Assembly (NCBI GenBank): GCA_020853525.1
Contig: JADYYS010000050.1
Coordinates: forward strand, 82,672 to 146,671
DNA: 64,000 nt
From: Ardenticatenales bacterium
Lineage (GTDB): Bacteria; Chloroflexota; Anaerolineae; Epilineales; Epilineaceae
Reading direction: 5' to 3'
Positions 3,411 to 42,650 of the stretch are shown here, piece after piece; the stretch's first letter is position 1, and each line of letters begins with the position of its first letter. A program made the position numbers and the translations under genes. The notes beneath the pieces are model-generated. The model was not told the origin of the DNA. It saw nothing but the letters and a program-made list of their open reading frames with translations, and did not search any database.

Positions 3411-4610
3411 CTAAGTGGCGAACAACAGTCGCTCGACGAAGGTCTCGAGTTGGATCTCGAGATGATCAAAGCTGGTCATATTCTGTTCAAATTCACTCAC
3501 AAAATACGGCACATTTCGCTCGTCAAGATCATGAGCATAACTCACCTGCTCCTCAAGTCCAGGCTCACACATCTTGGCAGCAGTGAGGATTGCTGCAGTC
3601 GCGCCAGACGCGCGCATCCGTTCTTCCAGCATGCGCTCTTTTGGCTTGCGAAGGTCGTGCTGCACCGGGCTGTAGCTACTATGCTCCAGGTACGCGCTGG
3701 CCAATGCGGCAAGAGGATCCCCTTCGCACAGAACATCAGCCGTGATCCAGCGCAGCCCGATCATCAGATCATCGTCTACCACATAGCAGGACTGGCCGAT
3801 AACCCGCAGCAAGTCGATCGGCGGCTGTTCGCAGAACCCTCCCTCGAAGACAACACGCACACGGTCCTGAGGATGTGCTGAGCGCGCCTCGATGAGTGGT
3901 AGAATCCGGTGCAGGAGGGCATTGTGCTCTTCGCGCGGTACCAGTCCGCCGAGGGCAACGAGCACGTAGACCTCATCCAGCCCGACTAGCCAAGGTCGGT
4001 CGCGCTTCACGGCATACAATGCCCGAATCAAGCGCCGGTTCTCGTTGAACACCTCAACGCTACGCCGTAGGTCATCGTCAGTCACCGCTCTTCCGGCCAG
4101 ATCCTCGATACTACGCCGCATGCGATCATACTCGTGGCGAAGGTAGTCGGCAGCAAAGGCCGAGTTGGCGTTCTGCGGTAGGTACAGGATCTGGCAGGGG
4201 TAGCTGACATTGCGACCCCACACAGCGGCCAGATTGCGAGCCGCATCGCAGATAGGATGACTGACGAACATGTCGAGTGGAAGACGGTTATCGAGTGCCA
4301 ACTCCAGCGACGACTTCATGATGGAGCACAGGTAGGACCCAAAGCGCGAGTCGGCATGCTGCGGCTCGATCATTGCCCCGCGCACTTTGACGGGCAGCAG
4401 TCCCGCGGCGTGGACGATCTCTTCCGGGAAATACACCTGGAAGTGTCCAACTGTCTTACCGCCGAACTCACGCCAGCGCCGAACAGTCGGGAAGTCGGCG
4501 TCGTCCACCACCTCGCGACATGCAGTCAGGGTGTCCGTGAGGTTGAGCCGCTCCCACTCGTCCAGGATGAGGTTCAAGTTGGACTCCTCGCTGGAGTCGT
4601 CCTGTCGCAC
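3411..4610 (-). CDS. bzdN: Benzoyl-CoA reductase catalytic-module subunit (BzdN-like)
   Basis: A 399-residue HgdB/BcrC-type subunit that pairs with BzdO. Motifs seen are HFQVYFPEEIVHAAGLLPV near residue 55, SHPICDAARNLA, VVFEGGFCEQPPIDLLR, GQSCYVVDDDLMIG and AKMCEPGLEEQ; these hold the cysteine ligands of the catalytic-module FeS clusters. The start is a GTG at 4610 with a weak AAAGG site. Length and position (first of the four reductase genes) match Azoarcus BzdN. The local base composition is clearly lower in GC than in the window from 8 kb onward. Confidence 0.87.
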   Translation of the reverse strand: MRQDDSSEESNLNLILDEWERLNLTDTLTACREVVDDADFPTVRRWREFGGKTVGHFQVYFPEEIVHAAGLLPVKVRGAMIEPQHADSRFGSYLCSIMKSSLELALDNRLPLDMFVSHPICDAARNLAAVWGRNVSYPCQILYLPQNANSAFAADYLRHEYDRMRRSIEDLAGRAVTDDDLRRSVEVFNENRRLIRALYAVKRDRPWLVGLDEVYVLVALGGLVPREEHNALLHRILPLIEARSAHPQDRVRVVFEGGFCEQPPIDLLRVIGQSCYVVDDDLMIGLRWITADVLCEGDPLAALASAYLEHSSYSPVQHDLRKPKERMLEERMRASGATAAILTAAKMCEPGLEEQVSYAHDLDERNVPYFVSEFEQNMTSFDHLEIQLETFVERLLFAT

Positions 4611-4643
4611 CGTGCCTTTGTGCCTGCCCGGTCTTTCATACCG

Positions 4644-5495: not shown

Positions 5496-6593
5496 TCAGG
5501 ATGGCCGCACATCGCGTGCCTCCTGATCCGCGAGGGATGCGCCACACTGACCACAGAATCGAAACGTCACCGGCAGCTGACCGGTGCCACAAACAGAGCA
5601 GCGTCCGGAGTACGGTCCCCAACGGAACTCGCTGGACCCTCCGTCGGCCGCCCGCTGGCGAATAGCCCGATAATCAGGCGATCTCCGCTCTACGAAGGCC
5701 GTCATGCCTTCGAGTGGCTCCAACGATGTGTAGTGCAGTGCAAGCCATTCGCCGGCATGCCCTATCGTCTGGGACCATGACATCTGCTTCCAGAAGCCAA
5801 CCTGCTCCCGTGTGTAACGGGTGCATTCGGCGAACTTGTCCACCAGCTTCTGGCAAAGCACGTCCACCGCTTGGTCAAGAGCGGTCAGATCGATGGAGTA
5901 GCCGTCCCGGCCACCTAGCGCCAACTCGATGGCCTCTGGGCCGGCACGCTCGATATAGGCGCCGTCCTTGATTACCGATGGTACAACCTGGTTCACCAAC
6001 CCCCAATCGAGGGCCTGGTAGGCGGGGATGGGCTCATTTAGGAACAGCATCTCCCGCGCACGCCGATCGCCGATATGGATCGGCAGCCACTGTGTCGCTC
6101 CCCCGGCTGCAACACTACCCACACTGGTGCCGACTTGGCGAAGGTAGGCATGCTCGGCCATGACGGCCAGGTCGCAGGCCATTTGGCTCTCATTGCCGCC
6201 CCCGACTGCCATGCCGTTGAGCCGTGCGATCACGGGCTTGCCGGCATTGAGGATGGATTCCAGGTACGCCCGAAACAGCCGCATGTACTTCCAGTAGTCA
6301 CGAGGACGGTCCGTGTATTCGGCCTGGTACTCCTTCACGTCGCCCCCGGTGCAGAATGCTCGGTGGCCGGTGCCGCTGAAGACGATCACGGCCACGCTGT
6401 CATCGAACGACGCGTCACGGAATGCAGTGGCCAGCGACTCAAGGGCGGAGGTGCTGTAGGCGTTGTGCCGATCCGGACGGTCAATCGTGATGCGCGCAAT
6501 CCAGTCCCGCTTCTCGTAGGTCACCTCTCGAAAGCCAAACGAATCCGCCGGGCGGGGAACAAGACTGCGTCCGTAGTAGTTATCGTGGTTCAT
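5496..6593 (-). CDS. bzdY: 6-oxocyclohex-1-ene-1-carbonyl-CoA hydrolase (Oah/BzdY-like) with C-terminal zinc ribbon
   Basis: A 365-residue crotonase-fold ring hydrolase, longer than ordinary hydratases as expected for Oah. It hydrates and opens the 6-oxo ring to a dicarboxylic (3-hydroxypimelyl) CoA ester. Crotonase landmarks are FSGTGHRAFCTGGDVKEYQ and NGMAVGGGNESQMACDLAVM; the C-terminal half (EQVGFWKQMSW) resembles Oah. After the usual end, the last about 45 residues add a ribbon with two CxxC knuckles (CSVCG and CGQCG, 14 residues between them), which I do not know from characterised Oah proteins. An AGAAGGA ribosome site precedes the ATG at 6593. Confidence 0.84.
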   Translation of the reverse strand: MNHDNYYGRSLVPRPADSFGFREVTYEKRDWIARITIDRPDRHNAYSTSALESLATAFRDASFDDSVAVIVFSGTGHRAFCTGGDVKEYQAEYTDRPRDYWKYMRLFRAYLESILNAGKPVIARLNGMAVGGGNESQMACDLAVMAEHAYLRQVGTSVGSVAAGGATQWLPIHIGDRRAREMLFLNEPIPAYQALDWGLVNQVVPSVIKDGAYIERAGPEAIELALGGRDGYSIDLTALDQAVDVLCQKLVDKFAECTRYTREQVGFWKQMSWSQTIGHAGEWLALHYTSLEPLEGMTAFVERRSPDYRAIRQRAADGGSSEFRWGPYSGRCSVCGTGQLPVTFRFCGQCGASLADQEARDVRPS

Positions 6594-18332: not shown

Positions 18333-18511
18333 GGGCGGGCTCCGTATGGGTGGGACGGGCCGGTGGGGCTGGCCCGAGCGTCGCGAGAAGACGACCGCGG
18401 GGGCGGTCGCGATTTGGGTGGGCGGGGCGGTGACGGGAGATCGTAGTGGAGGATGGGGTTGGGTTCAACAACGCTGGGGTGGGGGTGGGGTGTGACGGGG
18501 GGGGTGCCGAC

Positions 18512-18575
18512 GGCCTTAGGCCCTCTCCCCCCGACCCCCTCCCCCAAGTCTGGGGGAGGGGGAGGATGCTTGGCG
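18512..18575 (+). repeat. GC-rich hairpin repeat, copy A
   Basis: A 64-bp unit with a self-complementary core (CTCCCCCA-AGTC-TGGGGGAG) inside a C-rich then G-rich frame, ending GGATGCTTGGCG. Near-identical copies are at 19288-19351 (same strand), 19795-19858 (inverted) and, shorter, in dnaE (42251-42304). Here it lies in the 264-bp gap between the peptidase gene and a membrane-protein gene. Confidence 0.85.
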
Positions 18576-18596
18576 AGGGGGCCGGCAGGAGGCGCC

Positions 18597-19193: not shown

Positions 19194-19287
19194 GTCGGTT
19201 GGCTCCTTGGACGGGTGTGGTGGCAACGGGTGGATCATATCGCACTGTTAAAGGGTGGGCGTGTCTGTACGGGATCACACGACGGGC

Positions 19288-19351
19288 GGCCTAAGGCCCT
19301 CTCCCCCCGACCCCCTCCCCCAAGTCTGGGGGAGGGGGAGGATGCTTGGCG
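19288..19351 (+). repeat. GC-rich hairpin repeat, copy B
   Basis: Almost identical to copy A over 64 bp and in the same orientation. It lies 57 bp before the DUF559 gene, and copy C lies inverted at that gene's other end. Confidence 0.85.
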
Positions 19352-19408
19352 GGGGGGGGCGGCATGGGATACGCTTGAGGGCGTTCGCGAGTTCCTCGGG
19401 AGGGTTGG

Positions 19409-19846
19409 ATGATGCAGTCATCGAGCGGCCGGATTCGGGGTACGTTGGCTGTCGTGGAGGCGAGCGCGCGCGAGATGCGACATCGGCCAACTCCTGCGGA
19501 ACGCGTACTCTGGGACATGCTCCGCACGGCGCCGGTCGGCGGCTTGAAATGGCGTCGGCAGCACCCAGTCGGCCGATTCGTCCTCGACTTCTGTTGCCCT
19601 CAACTTCGTCTGGTCGTCGAGCTCGACGGCGAGGTACATGCGTATCAAGCGTCCTACGATGAGGACCGAACGGATCACCTGGCGCGCCACGGCTACCACG
19701 TGATCCGCTTCGCCAACCGCGACGTCTTCGATCACCCGGATGCCGTTCTCGCGACGATCGCATCGGCTTGCCAATCCCGATCCGCCCTCCCCCCCGCCAA
19801 GCATCCTCCCCCTCCCCCAGACTTGGGGGAGGGGGTCGGGGGGTGA
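19409..19846 (+). CDS. DUF559 (Vsr-like nuclease fold) protein flanked by inverted repeats
   Basis: A 145-residue protein. Residues about 15-125 are a DUF559 domain: REMRHRPTPAERVLWDMLR, KWRRQHPVGRFVLDFCCPQLRLVVELDGEVH, DRTDHLARHGYHVIRFANRDV. The D-(x)n-ELDGE pattern is the PD-(D/E)XK-like catalytic core related to very-short-patch repair nucleases. The last about 18 residues (PPAKHPPPPPDLGEGVGG) are encoded by repeat copy C, which also supplies the stop codon. A GGGAGGG site precedes the tandem ATGs. Nuclease activity is a family inference. The placement between inverted repeat copies suggests a mobile or repeat-maintaining role. Confidence 0.8.
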   Translation: MMQSSSGRIRGTLAVVEASAREMRHRPTPAERVLWDMLRTAPVGGLKWRRQHPVGRFVLDFCCPQLRLVVELDGEVHAYQASYDEDRTDHLARHGYHVIRFANRDVFDHPDAVLATIASACQSRSALPPAKHPPPPPDLGEGVGG

Positions 19847-19858
19847 GGGCCTTAGGCC
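19795..19858 (-). repeat. GC-rich hairpin repeat, copy C (inverted)
   Basis: Reverse complement of copies A and B with one or two differences. It contains the end of the DUF559 frame (TGA 19844-19846) and the overlapping GTG (19843) that best starts the GH44 gene. The G-run just upstream of that GTG can act as a ribosome site. Confidence 0.85.
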
Positions 19859-21606
19859 GCCCGCCAATCGTCCTCCTCACGCTCGCCACGTCGCTCGGCC
19901 TCCTTGCCCCCGTCCTCCATCTCAGGGCAGGCGCGCCTCGCGCCGCAGCCCTCGCCACCCCGTCCTTCACCATCGACACCACCGCCGACCGCCGCCCGAT
20001 CAGCCCCGACATCTACGGCATGAACTTCGCCGACCCGGCTCTGATGCGCGAATTGGGCATGACGGTTCGCCGCTGGGGCGGCAACGCGACGACGCGTTAC
20101 AACTACATGGACGACACTTCCAACCGCGGCAGCGACTGGTTCTTCGAGACGCTCCCCGAGGACAACGACGACCGGGCCCGCCTCCCCGGCGGCTCAGCCG
20201 CCGACCGCTTCGTCGCTGAGGGCCGGGCCGCCGGCACGAACACCGTGCTCACCGTGCCGCTCATCGGCTGGACGGCCAAGGCGGGCGGTCGCTATTGCTC
20301 GTTCAGCGTCGCCAAGTACGGGCCGCCGGAGGGCACCGACCCGTGGTGGTCGGACTGCGGCAACGGGCGTCGCCCGGGCGGCGCGGCGATCACGGGCAAC
20401 GACCCGACGGACGCGAACACGGCCGTCGACCCGACGTTCGTCAAGCGCTGGGTGACGCACCTCGTCGACACGTTCGGCGACGCATCACAAGGCGGCGTGA
20501 AGTACTACAACCTCGACAACGAGCCGATGCTCTGGCACGAGACGCACCGCGACGTCTTCCCGCGCGGCCTCGACTACGACGGGCTGCGCGACCGAACGCT
20601 GGCCTACGCGGCGGCCGTCAAGGACGCGGACCCGTCGGCCGAGACGCTCGGGCCGGCGGAGTGGGGCTGGACGGGCTACTTCTGGTCCGCGCGGGACGCC
20701 GAGGGCGGCGGCGACTGGTGGAACCGTGCGCCCGACCGGCGGGCACACGGCGATGTGCCGTTGGCGGCGTGGTACCTGGCGCAGCTGCGCGACGCGGAGC
20801 GATCATCGGGCCGTCGCCTGCTCGACTACTTCGACCTCCACTACTACCCGCAGGCCGACGGCGTCGCCCTCGCGCCGGCGGGCGACGCGGCCACGCAGGC
20901 ACGGCGGCTGCGTTCGACCCGCTCGCTCTGGGACCCGACATACCACGATGAGAGCTGGATCGACGAGCCCGTCCGGCTGATCCCGCGCATGCGCGACTGG
21001 GTCGCGGCGAACTACCCCGGCACGAAGCTCGCGATCGGCGAGTACAACTGGGGCGCGCTGGACGATCTGAACGGCGCCCTGGCCCAGGTCGACGTCCTCG
21101 GCATCTTCGGCCGCGAGGGCGTCGACCTGGCGACGCTGTGGGATCCGATGAAGGCCGACGAGCCGGGCGCGTTCGCGTTCCGCGCCTTCCGCAACTACGA
21201 CGGTCAGGGCGGGCGGTTCGGCGAGACGGCGGTGCGCGTGGCAGGCGGCACCGCCGAGCGGGACGTGGCGGTGTACGCGGCGGAGCGGGCGGCCGATGGG
21301 GCATTGACGGTGGTGGCGGTGAACAAGACGACGGTGGGCGTGGACGCGTTGGCCTGCCTCGCCAACTTCGTGCCGCGCTCACCGGTCCGCGCCTTCCGCT
21401 ACGACGCATCCTTGCCGGCATCGATCCGCCGCCTGCCCGACACCGGGCCTGTCAGGGACCTCTGCGGCCCGAACGAGGACGACGTCGCACTGCGGCTCGA
21501 CCTGCCGGCGACGTCGATCACGATCCTCGAGGCGCTTCCGGACCGCTCAGCCCCCCCCTTCGAGACACCTCGCCTGCCCGTCTACCTGCCCTTCGCGCGG
21601 CAATGA
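19843..21606 (+). CDS. Secreted glycoside hydrolase family 44-like endoglucanase
   Basis: A 587-residue exported enzyme. After a signal peptide (IVLLTLATSLGLLAPVLHL) the domain starts TIDTTADRRPISPDIYGMNF…RRWGGNATTRYNY, the GH44 signature. The likely acid/base is E227 in LDNEPMLWHE and the nucleophile E400 in AIGEYNWG. GH44 enzymes cleave cellulose or xyloglucan chains with retention. A small beta domain follows, and the protein ends LPVYLPFARQ, a tail like those of two other secreted proteins here. The start is taken as GTG 19843 inside repeat C; an earlier TTG at 19768 would add repeat-encoded residues before the signal peptide. Confidence 0.85.
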   Translation: MRALGRPPIVLLTLATSLGLLAPVLHLRAGAPRAAALATPSFTIDTTADRRPISPDIYGMNFADPALMRELGMTVRRWGGNATTRYNYMDDTSNRGSDWFFETLPEDNDDRARLPGGSAADRFVAEGRAAGTNTVLTVPLIGWTAKAGGRYCSFSVAKYGPPEGTDPWWSDCGNGRRPGGAAITGNDPTDANTAVDPTFVKRWVTHLVDTFGDASQGGVKYYNLDNEPMLWHETHRDVFPRGLDYDGLRDRTLAYAAAVKDADPSAETLGPAEWGWTGYFWSARDAEGGGDWWNRAPDRRAHGDVPLAAWYLAQLRDAERSSGRRLLDYFDLHYYPQADGVALAPAGDAATQARRLRSTRSLWDPTYHDESWIDEPVRLIPRMRDWVAANYPGTKLAIGEYNWGALDDLNGALAQVDVLGIFGREGVDLATLWDPMKADEPGAFAFRAFRNYDGQGGRFGETAVRVAGGTAERDVAVYAAERAADGALTVVAVNKTTVGVDALACLANFVPRSPVRAFRYDASLPASIRRLPDTGPVRDLCGPNEDDVALRLDLPATSITILEALPDRSAPPFETPRLPVYLPFARQ

Positions 21607-38672: not shown

Positions 38673-41600
38673 ATGCCGTCGTTCACCCACCTCCACGTCC
38701 ACTCGGACTACAGCCTTCTCGACGGCCTCGCCCGCATCCCGGACCTGGTCAAGACGGCCGCCGAGCGGAACTTCGACGCCCTGGCGCTGACGGACCACGG
38801 CGTGATGTTCGGTGCGGTGCAGTTCGTGCAGTACGCCAGGAAAGCCGGCATCAAGCCGATCATCGGCTGTGAGCTCTACGTCGCCAACCGGACGCGGTCC
38901 GATCGCGACAGCCAGATCGACCGCAAGCCCTACCACCTGACGGCCCTCGCCGAGAACGAGGTCGGCTACCGCAACCTCCTCTCACTCGTCAGCCGCGCCC
39001 AGCTCGAGGGCTTCTACTACAAGCCGCGCGTCGACCGCGAGCTCCTCAGCGCGCACGCCGAGGGTGTGATCGTCTTCTCGGGCTGCCCGGCCGCCGAAGT
39101 CGCGCGCTGGCTCATGGAGGGCCAGTACGACAAGGCGCGCGAGGCGGCCGCTTGGTACGCCGACACGTTCCCCGGCCGCTACTACATCGAGCTCCAGGTC
39201 CACGACATCCACTTCATCCCGCAGCTGAACAAGGATCTGCTCCGCCTGGCCGACGACCTCGGCCTGCCGACGGTGGCCACGAACGACGTCCACTACTGCC
39301 GCGAGACGGACGTCCGGGCGCACGAGGTCCTGCTGTGCGTCCAGACGCAGACCACCATGAACGACCCGAAGCGCATGAAGATCGGCGACACGTTCTACCT
39401 GCGCACGGCCGAGGAGATGGCCCACCTCTTCCGCGAGATGCCCCAGGCCCTCACGACGACCGCGGAGATCGCCGAGCGCTGCAACGTCACGCTCGACTTC
39501 GACGGCTACAAGCTGCCGCAGTTCGACGTCCCCGCCGGCCACACCCCCGCCTCGTACCTGCGCGCGCTGTGCGACGCGGGCGTTGCGGAGCGCTACGACG
39601 TCGTGACCGACGCGGTGCGGGAGCGGCTGGACTACGAGCTGTCCGTCATCGGCCAGATGGGCTTCGACAGCTACTTCCTCATCGTCTGGGACCTCTGCCG
39701 CTTTGCCGCCGCCGAGGGCGTCTGGTGGAACGTCCGCGGCTCGGGCGCCGGCTCCATCGTCAGCTACGCCCTGCGGATCACGAACCTCGACCCTCTCCAC
39801 CACCAACTGATCTTCGAGCGCTTCCTGAACCCGTCCCGCATCAGCATGCCCGACATCGACCTCGACTTCCCGGACGACCAGCGCGACCTGCTCATCCAGT
39901 ACACGTTCCGCAAGTACGGCCACGACCGCGTGGCCCAGATCATCACGTTCGGGACGATGGGCGCCCGCGCCGCCATCCGCGACGCCGGCCGCGCTCTGGA
40001 CTTCCCGCTCTCCGACGTCGATCGCGTCGCCCGCCTTGTGCCGGCGATCCCGGGCAAGGCGTGCGGGATCGCGGACGCGATGCGTCCCGGGACGGGCGAG
40101 GAGCCGAACGAGTTCTACACGGCCGACCTCGTCCAGATCTACAAGGCCGAGCCGGACGTCAAGATCCTGCTCGATACGGCGCAGACGCTCGAGGGCGTCG
40201 CCCGCCACGCCTCGACGCACGCGGCCGGCGTCGTGATCTGCGACCGGCCGCTCGTCGAGGTCGTCCCGCTCCACCGCCCGACGCGCGGCAGCGACGACGC
40301 GGCGGCGGTGGCCGACCTGCTGGCCGTCACGCAGTACAACATGAAGGACGTCGAGACGCTCGGGCTGCTGAAGGTGGACTTCCTCGGCCTATCGACGCTG
40401 ACGGTGCTCCGCCGCGCCGCCGAGCTTGTCGAGCGCTACCACGGCGTGCGCTACACACTGGACAACATCCCGCTGGACGACCCGGCCATCTACCAGCTCC
40501 TGTCGGCCGGCAACGTCACCGGCGTGTTCCAGGTGGAAGGCGCCGGCATGCGCAAGATGCTGCGCGAGATGCGCCCCAACCGCTTCGAGCACGTCGTCGC
40601 CGCCATCGCCCTCTACCGCCCGGGGCCGATGGAGTACATCCCGACGTACATCAAGCGCCTGCACGGCGAGGAGCCCGTACGCTACCGCCACCCCCTCCTC
40701 GAGCCGATCCTGTCCGAGACGTACGGCATCATCGTCTACCAGGAGCAGATCATCCAGATCGCCCGCGACCTGGCCGGCTACGATGCGGGCGAGGCGGACA
40801 CGATCCGCAAGGCCGTCGGCAAGAAGATCAAAGCCGAGCTCGTCAAGCACCGCACGACGTTCGTCGAGGGCGCGGCGGCGAACGGGATCGCCCGACCGGT
40901 CGCCGAAGGGATCTTCGACGACATCGAGACGTTCGCCCGCTACGGCTTCAACAAAGCGCACGCCGCCGACTACGCCGTCATCGTCTGCCAGACCGCCTTC
41001 CTCAAGGCGCACCACCCGGTGGAATATGCCACGGCGCTGCTGTCCGTCGACCGCGACGACACCGCCAAGATCGCCGTGGTGGCGGCCGATAGCCGCCGCC
41101 AGGGGATCGCGCTCCTGCCGCCCAGCGTCGACGCGAGCGACCTCGACTTCGTCATCGAGGGTCTCGACGTCGAAGCGACGGACGACGCGGTCGGCACCCG
41201 GCGCAGCATCCGCTTCGGCTTGGCCGCCATCAAGAACGTCGGCGAGGGGCAGTCCCGGGCGATCATGGCGGCGCGCGCGGATGGGCCGTTCGACGACCTG
41301 GACGACCTCTGCCGGCGCGTCGACCTGCGCCAGGTCGGCAAGCGCTCCCTCGAATCGCTGATGAAGGTCGGTGCGTTCGACCGCTACGGCACCCGCGCCG
41401 CGCTGCTGGCGACGATCGACCGGATGATGTCGACGAGCACGGCCCACCACCAGGCCAAGGACGTCGGTCAGCTCTCGCTCTTCGGCGGCATGGTCGATGC
41501 AGCGCAGCCGGCCATGGTCACACCGCTCCCCGACCTGCCGCGCGACGTCAAGACCGAGCTGACGTGGGAGAAGGAGTTGATCGGCCTCTACCTGTCCGAC

Positions 41601-42650
41601 CACCCCCTCCACCGCCACGCCGCCGCGCTCGTCGAGACCATCACCGTCCTGTCCGGCGACATCGACGAGACGAAGGCGGGCCTGCCCGTGACGATGGCCG
41701 GCCTCGTGACGAGCGTCCGCACCCTCGTCACGAAGAAGGGCGCCACGATGGCGTTCATCAAGATCGAGGACCTGCAGGGCGATGTCGAGCTCACGCTCTT
41801 CCCGCGCACGTACGAGGCGACGCGCGACCTCTGGAAGGCGGATCGCGTCGTCCTCGTCCAGGGCAAGGTCGAGTACCGCGGCGACCGCCCGCAGATCCTC
41901 GTCGACACGGCATGGTCGTACGATCCCGACGGCACGGGCGACGCCGATGTGGGCACCACCGGCGTCGATGCCGCGCCCGCGGCCGCGGTCTGGCGCGTGC
42001 CGGCGGCGGCCAACATCGCCGCGCCACTGGTGAACGGGACGTTCGACATGGCGTGGACGGCACCGAGGCCGACGCCGGCGAATGGCGCCCCGACGAACAC
42101 GCCCCCGATGGTAGGGGCACGGCATGCCGTGCCCATCGCCCGACCACCCGAGGCCAACGCGCCCGCCGATCCAAGCCCCGCGCTGCCGCGTTGGGTCACG
42201 GAAACGGAGAAGGTGATCGCGGAGGCCGAGCGGGGGATGCTTGGGCGTGCGCAGGCCCTCACCCCCCGACCCCCTCCCCCAAGGCTGGGGGAGGGGGAGG
42301 ATCAGGGGGCGGTGGAAGAAGCACATGTCGCTTCCATCGTCGATTCTGTTTCCAACGGATCTACCCCCTCACCCCCCCAACCCACCCGCCCCGACGGCCC
42401 CACCTACCACGTCGAAGTCCGCATCCCCCCCGGCCCCGACCAAGCAACGACCATCGGCCTGCTCAGCGAGGTCTTCAACCTCCTCATCGGCTTCAGCGGA
42501 CCGGACCGCTTCTCCGTGATCCTGCCGAACGGCCACGAGCTCGTCGAGCTCGAGTTCCCGAACAACACCACCCGCTACTGCGTCGACCTGCTGCGCAAGC
42601 TCTCGACGATGGTCGGCGACGAGCGGCGGATCAAGGTCGCGGCGCGGTGA
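38673..42650 (+). CDS. dnaE: DNA polymerase III alpha subunit
   Basis: A 1325-residue replicative polymerase. The PHP domain starts THLHVHSDYSLLDGLARI; the palm has SMPDIDLDFPD with D394 and D396 as catalytic metal ligands; GFNKAHAADYAVIVCQTAF is the typical fingers segment; the OB domain includes GLVTSVRTLVTKKGATMAFIKIEDLQG (about 1010-1040). Residues about 1090-1245 are a low-complexity insert containing one palindromic repeat (about 1148) and one GC-rich repeat (about 1193-1210); normal sequence resumes near YHVEVRIPPGPDQ. No ribosome site precedes the ATG, and a TATCCT lies 7 nt upstream, so the mRNA may be leaderless. Confidence 0.95.
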   Translation: MPSFTHLHVHSDYSLLDGLARIPDLVKTAAERNFDALALTDHGVMFGAVQFVQYARKAGIKPIIGCELYVANRTRSDRDSQIDRKPYHLTALAENEVGYRNLLSLVSRAQLEGFYYKPRVDRELLSAHAEGVIVFSGCPAAEVARWLMEGQYDKAREAAAWYADTFPGRYYIELQVHDIHFIPQLNKDLLRLADDLGLPTVATNDVHYCRETDVRAHEVLLCVQTQTTMNDPKRMKIGDTFYLRTAEEMAHLFREMPQALTTTAEIAERCNVTLDFDGYKLPQFDVPAGHTPASYLRALCDAGVAERYDVVTDAVRERLDYELSVIGQMGFDSYFLIVWDLCRFAAAEGVWWNVRGSGAGSIVSYALRITNLDPLHHQLIFERFLNPSRISMPDIDLDFPDDQRDLLIQYTFRKYGHDRVAQIITFGTMGARAAIRDAGRALDFPLSDVDRVARLVPAIPGKACGIADAMRPGTGEEPNEFYTADLVQIYKAEPDVKILLDTAQTLEGVARHASTHAAGVVICDRPLVEVVPLHRPTRGSDDAAAVADLLAVTQYNMKDVETLGLLKVDFLGLSTLTVLRRAAELVERYHGVRYTLDNIPLDDPAIYQLLSAGNVTGVFQVEGAGMRKMLREMRPNRFEHVVAAIALYRPGPMEYIPTYIKRLHGEEPVRYRHPLLEPILSETYGIIVYQEQIIQIARDLAGYDAGEADTIRKAVGKKIKAELVKHRTTFVEGAAANGIARPVAEGIFDDIETFARYGFNKAHAADYAVIVCQTAFLKAHHPVEYATALLSVDRDDTAKIAVVAADSRRQGIALLPPSVDASDLDFVIEGLDVEATDDAVGTRRSIRFGLAAIKNVGEGQSRAIMAARADGPFDDLDDLCRRVDLRQVGKRSLESLMKVGAFDRYGTRAALLATIDRMMSTSTAHHQAKDVGQLSLFGGMVDAAQPAMVTPLPDLPRDVKTELTWEKELIGLYLSDHPLHRHAAALVETITVLSGDIDETKAGLPVTMAGLVTSVRTLVTKKGATMAFIKIEDLQGDVELTLFPRTYEATRDLWKADRVVLVQGKVEYRGDRPQILVDTAWSYDPDGTGDADVGTTGVDAAPAAAVWRVPAAANIAAPLVNGTFDMAWTAPRPTPANGAPTNTPPMVGARHAVPIARPPEANAPADPSPALPRWVTETEKVIAEAERGMLGRAQALTPRPPPPRLGEGEDQGAVEEAHVASIVDSVSNGSTPSPPQPTRPDGPTYHVEVRIPPGPDQATTIGLLSEVFNLLIGFSGPDRFSVILPNGHELVELEFPNNTTRYCVDLLRKLSTMVGDERRIKVAAR
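42115..42134. repeat. 20-bp perfect palindrome in dnaE
   Basis: GGGCACGGCATGCCGTGCCC, encoding ARHAVP in the dnaE frame. The same palindrome with similar left flank occurs twice in hom (44563 and 44689). Confidence 0.9.
42251..42304 (+). repeat. GC-rich hairpin repeat, copy D, inside dnaE
   Basis: A 54-bp copy of the repeat at 18512 with a few changes (AAGGCT in the loop). It is read in frame as ALTPRPPPPRLGEGED within the disordered insert of DnaE. Confidence 0.8.

What the first reader, a model, noticed from the sequence alone, without database searches (positions are those of the whole stretch)
19288..19858. DUF559 nuclease-like gene enclosed by inverted copies of a GC-rich hairpin repeat: candidate mobile unit
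Copy B (forward) and copy C (inverted) bracket the DUF559 gene as terminal inverted repeats would. Copy A lies 0.7 kb away and copy D sits in dnaE. A Vsr-like nuclease beside a dispersed palindrome recalls REP elements with their RAYT nucleases, but with a different enzyme class. I recall DUF559 proteins with repeat-encoded PPPSLGEG-like tails in related genomes, which would fit a linked system.
Basis: partly seen in the sequence, partly recalled or inferred. Interest (0 to 1): 0.75.

Follow-up and report, generated by a model that had tools for sequence, protein, structure and literature searches.

The report
DUF559 nuclease paired with hairpin repeats
Small nuclease genes of the DUF559 family sit between inverted copies of short, dispersed DNA hairpin repeats in many bacterial phyla, and the repeat-plus-nuclease unit comes and goes between related species, even in frame inside genes such as metH, so it looks like an unrecognised repeat-associated mobile system.

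Summary
In the window a 75-nt hairpin repeat (19283-19357) and a 99% inverted copy (19789-19863) bracket a DUF559 gene. The repeat has about 30 sites in this genome. The genome's only other DUF559 gene (50% identical) is bracketed by inverted copies of a different dispersed repeat. Among DUF559 loci from many phyla, 42/76 have such inverted repeats versus 1/468 other ORFs on the same contigs. In 400 Chloroflexota genomes repeat number follows DUF559 (>=20 copies: 54/182 versus 8/218) and not RAYT-type Y1 transposases. A 0.6-kb DUF559 unit is absent at the same site in four congeneric species. In another genus, repeat-DUF559-repeat sits in frame in metH in 8 of about 45 species, scattered on the MetH tree. 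Best reading: a RAYT/REPIN-like partnership with an unrelated Vsr-fold nuclease and homing-like behaviour. Shown: linkage, dispersal, polymorphism. Not shown: cleavage, movement, target duplication. A classical TIR transposon is not supported. I found no published DUF559-repeat link in an open-access library. The window's own site could not be compared, because no close relative is held.

The parts
18511..18581 (+). Copy A of the hairpin repeat, solo, same orientation as copy B
   Evidence: 97% identical to copy B over 71 nt; one of about 30 genome sites
19283..19357 (+). Copy B of the hairpin repeat, left flank of the DUF559 gene; second arm (tail) faces away from the gene
   Evidence: 75-nt arm of inverted repeat, 99% complementary to copy C; DNA hairpin z -3.1
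19409..19846 (+). DUF559 (Vsr-fold, EDxHD-like) nuclease gene, 145 aa; C-terminal tail is translated copy C
   Evidence: PF04480 E=7e-34; structural neighbours 3hrl and 3r3p; conserved E31, D60, E71, D73, H77, D84; low-confidence tail in the model
19789..19863 (-). Copy C of the hairpin repeat, inverted, right flank of the DUF559 gene; overlaps the 3' end of the ORF
   Evidence: DNA hairpin z -3.2
42253..42302 (+). Copy D, solo repeat in frame within dnaE (ORF 38673-42650), translated ALTPRPPPPRLGEGEDQ
   Evidence: BLAST match G000:C50:124924-124973, 96%; ORF translation

Best explanation
The DUF559 gene and the hairpin repeats form one selfish repeat-nuclease partnership that works like REPIN/RAYT but with an unrelated, Vsr-like (EDxHD) nuclease. 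The gene sits between inverted repeat copies. Its product is inferred to recognise its cognate repeat, probably the hairpin or its G-rich stem and tail, and to nick or cut there, so that repair or replication copies the small repeat units to new sites and lets the gene re-invade or leave sites with them. The gene stays at low copy while the repeats multiply. The repeat is often open in the frame that gives PNPSPxGEG-like linkers, so units are tolerated inside coding genes. Shown: linkage, dispersal, polymorphism, in-frame insertion, conserved nuclease motif. Inferred: repeat recognition, cleavage and the copying step.
For: Inverted repeats around 42/76 DUF559 loci versus 1/468 other ORFs and 44/77 versus 1/2139 sham windows (one of the 44 is an N-run artefact). 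Both DUF559 genes of this genome are bracketed, by two different dispersed repeats. Repeat number in 400 Chloroflexota genomes follows DUF559, not Y1/RAYT transposases. Repeat stem type is clustered on the DUF559 tree. A unit is absent in four congeners. About 12 of 44 mapped repeat sites differ between two congeners. In-frame unit in metH, scattered among species, with one-repeat and repeat-array forms. Nuclease fold and conserved residues. Paralogues diverged as reported for RAYTs.
Against: No cleavage or movement was shown, and repeat recognition is inferred from linkage. Roughly half of DUF559 loci lack a two-sided repeat by the score used. Many repeat-rich genomes lack the gene (G031, G040). 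Exact insertion limits and target duplications were not found. The 80-locus survey was seeded with mostly bracketed members, and co-occurrence counts are not corrected for relatedness. The window's own site has no empty counterpart.
Confidence: 0.6

Rival explanations
1. Homing endonuclease living in a repeat family: the repeats spread by other means, and the DUF559 nuclease cuts repeat-bearing or cognate sites such as the metH linker and is copied there by recombination, the repeats acting as homology arms and harmless in-frame linkers.
For: Nearest solved structures include the homing endonuclease I-Bth0305I; DUF559 also occurs in sequences that read as inteins; metH residents are one clade at one site across two genera, sporadic on the host tree, with identities that do not follow host identities.
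Against: Repeat copy number tracks DUF559 presence, which a passive repeat would not predict; the intein-borne DUF559s lack hairpin repeats. Eight occupied metH genes is a small sample, and many losses of one old insertion remain possible.
Confidence: 0.25
2. Classical insertion sequence: copies B and C are terminal inverted repeats, DUF559 is the transposase, solo repeats and close inverted pairs are its MITE-like remnants.
For: 99% inverted ends; inverted pair 72 bp apart without the gene at C39:76516-76723; absence of a 0.6-kb unit in congeners.
Against: No transposase domain; no near-identical gene copies within a genome; no target duplication seen; inserted segment larger than the hairpin-bounded unit; in metH and Sinorhizobium L090 each flank is a complete doublet, not a single end.
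Confidence: 0.07
3. Bystander: the repeats are REP elements driven by a RAYT or another enzyme and collect around any dispensable gene; DUF559 has an unrelated role such as mismatch repair.
For: This genome has one Y1 transposase gene; a Caulobacter DUF559 protein, VsrA, is proposed to act in mismatch repair (PMC12907096).
Against: Y1 presence does not predict the repeat once DUF559 is known; no repeat match lies on the Y1 gene's contig C9; other ORFs on the same contigs, small ones included (0/284), are not bracketed.
Confidence: 0.08

Closest known systems
REP/REPIN elements with RAYTs (PMC2817692, PMC3116915)
   Same: Gene flanked by two inverted palindromic repeats; repeats dispersed and often in inverted doublets; gene at low copy with divergent paralogues; repeat type and enzyme clade associated
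   Different: Enzyme is a Vsr-fold DUF559 nuclease, not a Y1 HUH transposase; no GTAG head; units also occur in frame inside coding genes; found in many phyla
EDxHD homing endonuclease I-Bth0305I (PDB 3r3p)
   Same: Fold and active-site type; sporadic occupancy of one site (metH linker)
   Different: No intron or intein around the window gene; flanked by dispersed hairpin repeats
Rickettsia palindromic elements (reviewed in PMC10969869)
   Same: Palindromic repeats inserted in frame in unrelated protein-coding genes
   Different: Here a nuclease gene can sit between the repeats; repeat sequences differ (not compared directly)
Vsr / VsrA mismatch-repair endonucleases (PMC12907096)
   Same: Fold family; VsrA carries a DUF559 domain
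   Different: No methyltransferase next to the window gene; repeat-bracketed
Rhizobial RIME mosaic elements (recalled, not tested)
   Same: From memory: palindrome doublets dispersed in rhizobia; L090 and L103 repeats look alike
   Different: Identity with RIME was not tested here; I know of no published driver

Membership tests
RAYT/REP | Y1 (HUH) tyrosine transposase gene | tested here: not met
   Pfam gives DUF559 and a weak REase_MTES_1575 match only
RAYT/REP | Gene flanked by two palindromic repeats in inverted orientation | tested here: met
RAYT/REP | Repeats dispersed in the genome, partly as inverted doublets | tested here: met
RAYT/REP | GTAG (GT[A/G]G) head next to the palindrome | tested here: not met
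   Read from the 75-nt copies B and C, which hold no such head
Insertion sequence with TIRs | Near-identical copies of the gene in one genome | tested here: not met
   Two DUF559 genes, 50% identical; 36-78% in the other genomes compared
Insertion sequence with TIRs | Target-site duplication | tested here: inconclusive
   Flanks too divergent to read joints; no duplication next to the window copies by eye
EDxHD/Vsr-fold homing endonuclease | Fold and conserved acidic residues and histidine | tested here: met
   3hrl and 3r3p; invariant E31, D60, E71, D73, H77, D84
EDxHD/Vsr-fold homing endonuclease | Residence in an intron or intein | tested here: not met
   Free-standing ORF in the window, no splicing domain in Pfam; introns were not searched for specifically
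EDxHD/Vsr-fold homing endonuclease | Sporadic occupancy of one fixed site | tested here: inconclusive
   Met for metH in another genus, alternative of many losses open; window site untestable
EDxHD/Vsr-fold homing endonuclease | Cuts a defined recognition site | not testable with these tools
   Needs the purified protein
Rickettsia palindromic elements | In-frame palindromic repeat in coding genes | tested here: met
   dnaE copy D; metH. Sequence kinship with RPEs was not tested
Vsr mismatch-repair endonuclease | Linked cytosine methyltransferase | tested here: not met
   Neighbours are a hypothetical protein, an M16C peptidase and a GH44 protein; linkage is not obligatory (PMC12907096)

The most novel reading that the evidence does not exclude
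DUF559 proteins are the dedicated drivers of a phylum-spanning superfamily of CCCTCTCCC-type palindromic repeats: a second, non-HUH class of repeat-mobilising nuclease that inserts and removes in-frame repeat units, explaining repeats without a known driver and palindromes inside coding genes.
Probability: 0.45. Interest if true: 0.92.

Novelty: new variant of a known kind. Interest (0 to 1): 0.8.

Why it matters
REP-like repeats are widespread, and for many families no driver is known; PMC3733652 states that CGTC repeats are not associated with transposase genes. If DUF559 drives one large class, a domain of unknown function gains a role, the PPPSLGEG-like tails seen on bacterial proteins are explained as translated mobile repeats, and metH with and without the unit becomes a tractable model of how mobile DNA settles inside coding genes. 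It also offers a testable contrast: the architecture of RAYT/REPIN with a different enzyme chemistry.

Tried and rejected
Rfam gave only a spurious mir-1228 hit far below its gathering score. The phage collection held three weak DUF559 matches, so phage spread is not indicated. PADLOC gave no defence-system match for the window protein. Two E. coli DUF559 records (L085, L086) have no inverted repeats. The Shinella comparison with Sinorhizobium L090 is consistent with an empty intergenic site but too divergent (81%) for exact limits. Limits of solo repeats between G130 and G010 could not be read because intergenic DNA diverges. A RAYT driver was tested as a rival and not supported. I first took the long ORFs with DUF559 for helicase fusions and a negative control; they turned out to be in-frame insertions and inteins. 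The neighbour gene of the window unit was found in none of 40 relatives, so no empty site could be sought. The first DUF559 alignment was too diverse to search with, and several alignment calls failed because loci from the genome search are not oriented.

Full report
OBSERVATION. The window is contig C50, 82672-146671, of a 4.27-Mb draft genome, in a phylum I take to be Chloroflexota (inference: gene content and named relatives). Copies B (19283-19357) and C (19789-19863) form a 75-nt inverted repeat, 99% complementary, around a 145-aa DUF559 ORF. Copy A is 776 nt upstream in the orientation of B. Copy D is a solo copy inside dnaE, in frame. The core is CCCCCTCCCCC-AAGTCT-GGGGGAGGGGG with a second arm, CCCTC(A/T)CCCCCCGA, outside it. 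Single-strand DNA folding of B and C beats all 200 shuffles. The last residues of the DUF559 protein, KHPPPPPDLGEGVGG, are copy C translated; the AlphaFold model is confident except at its ends.

GENOME SCALE. Family 1 has 39 matches at about 30 sites. One site holds an inverted pair 72 bp apart without the gene (C39:76516-76585 and 76658-76723). The genome has two DUF559 genes, 50% identical. The second, C19:92342-92650, is bracketed by inverted copies of an unrelated two-hairpin repeat (L032 1307-1340 and 1901-1934) with 22 matches in the genome, several as close inverted pairs. So both DUF559 genes are bracketed, each by its own repeat family.

CROSS-PHYLUM TEST. Eighty DUF559 loci from named genomes of many phyla were tested for inverted similarity between the 400 bp left and right of the domain: score >=16 in 44 of 77 (one, L167, is an artefact of N runs) against 1 of 2139 sham windows of the same contigs. 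Against ORF boundaries, with 300-bp flanks and N runs excluded: 42 of 76 against 1 of 468, and at score >=18, 39 of 76 against 0 of 468. Hairpins with stems of 9 or more on both sides: 42% against 0 of 865; on either side 69% against 7%. Many loci without a two-sided repeat still have one hairpin of the same class. The common form is CCCTCTCCC-loop-GGGAGAGGG, 2-4 nt or a small hairpin, then GGGTGAGGGG. The tail faces the gene in 21 and away from it in 3 of the loci that could be classed; in the window it faces away (read by eye). Plasmid loci of Pseudanabaena (L088) and Sinorhizobium (L090) are bracketed too. Caveat: the search seeds were mostly bracketed members. In the Chloroflexota list, chosen by domain score and not by repeats, 14 of 30 reach score 16.

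CO-OCCURRENCE. In 400 Chloroflexota genomes the pattern CCCTCNCCCN{0,8}GGGNGAGGGN{2,5}GGGNGAGG gives up to 455 copies per genome, and the backward-read control almost none. Genomes with DUF559 average 23.6 copies, those without 4.3; >=20 copies in 54/182 against 8/218, odds ratio 11. The window's genome itself scores 0, because its two families differ from this pattern. The Y1 transposase family (RAYT class) does not predict the repeat: with DUF559, 23/70 (Y1 present) and 31/112 (absent); without DUF559, 2/52 and 6/166. Counts were typed from tool output, and relatedness was not modelled. Repeats can persist without the gene (G031, G040). The stem type of the flanking hairpin is clustered on the DUF559 tree (36 changes, shuffled mean 47, none of 200 as low), though host relatedness may contribute.

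POLYMORPHISM. G130 carries a DUF559 unit of about 0.6 kb that is missing in G057 (3 bp between the matched flanks), G048, G010 and G146, with flanks 87-93% identical. Of 44 repeat sites mapped between G130 and G010, 11 of 28 and about 1 of 16 lack a hairpin in the other genome (one of two G010 cases is a mapping error). Exact limits and duplications could not be read.

IN-FRAME INSERTION. Several DUF559 domains lie in ORFs of 900-1400 aa. Pfam shows two of these to be MetH with its domains in order (S-methyl_trans, Pterin_bind, then DUF559, B12-binding_2, B12-binding, Met_synt_B12); others are DUF1156, MmeI-like and ISP-type proteins. No intein domain is reported for the MetH forms. Three further DUF559s lie in sequences that I read as inteins, and these have no hairpin repeats, a useful internal control. 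In the genus of G043, 8 of about 45 species with an assessable metH have repeat-DUF559-repeat in frame in the linker after VEADIDEIINR. Most have a short linker, G453 and G444 have one repeat, and G443 has a repeat array without the gene. Flanks in metH are often doublets: tail-hairpin-spacer-hairpin-tail. Occupancy is scattered on the MetH tree, 8 changes for 8 occupied species among 29 rows (quick tree, SH-aLRT only). The metH residents, with two from another genus, are one DUF559 clade (FastTree, few columns), and their identities do not follow host identities. That is homing-like, or an old insertion with very many losses.

MECHANISM. The fold is that of gonococcal 3hrl and of the I-Bth0305I homing endonuclease domain 3r3p, with conserved acidic residues and a histidine. 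I infer a nuclease that acts on its cognate repeat and thereby spreads repeat units, with the gene kept among them. It works like RAYT/REPIN, whose genes are likewise flanked by two inverted REPs and stay at low copy, but it is not a member: no HUH transposase and no GTAG head. Whether the primary act is repeat mobilisation or homing into repeats is open.

LIMITS. No close relative of the window's genome is held: the neighbour gene was found in none of 40 relatives, so the window's own site has no empty counterpart. No activity was measured. The literature search covers an open-access library only; within it no paper that I found links DUF559 with repeats.

Noticed in passing
L313, L316, L318: DUF559 domains inside sequences that read as inteins (Hint-like blocks on both sides) within DNA methylase-like proteins, without hairpin repeats.
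   Followed up: partly
L145:5831-5977 and 6347-6493 (Legionella anisa): DUF559 gene bracketed by 147-nt inverted repeats, much longer than elsewhere; this genome (G405) has ten DUF559 matches including broken ones.
   Followed up: no
L087:3870-3904 and 4583-4616 (Neisseria gonorrhoeae): A gonococcal DUF559 gene, the family of solved structure 3hrl (ngo0050), has degenerate inverted hairpins with tails on both sides.
   Followed up: no
L156:5939-6420 (Variovorax guangxiensis): The DUF559 unit lies between two genes that look like a fatty-acid oxidation operon, and the repeat is translated at both ends of the DUF559 ORF.
   Followed up: no
window 19768-19870: The downstream GH44 ORF (19768-21606) as called begins inside copy C, so its true start is probably just after the repeat.
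   Followed up: no
G000:C9:35322-35663 (L358): The genome has one clear Y1 transposase gene; no family-1 or family-2 repeat match lies on that contig.
   Followed up: partly
L026, L027, L028 (own genome): Some family-1 copies are interrupted between the arms by a second palindrome (GAACCCCACCGCACC..GGTGCGGCGGGG), a nested repeat.
   Followed up: no
G031, G040 (same family and genus codes as G075, G107): Genomes with 142 and 200 repeat copies but no DUF559 gene, next to congeners that have it: repeats outlast the gene.
   Followed up: no
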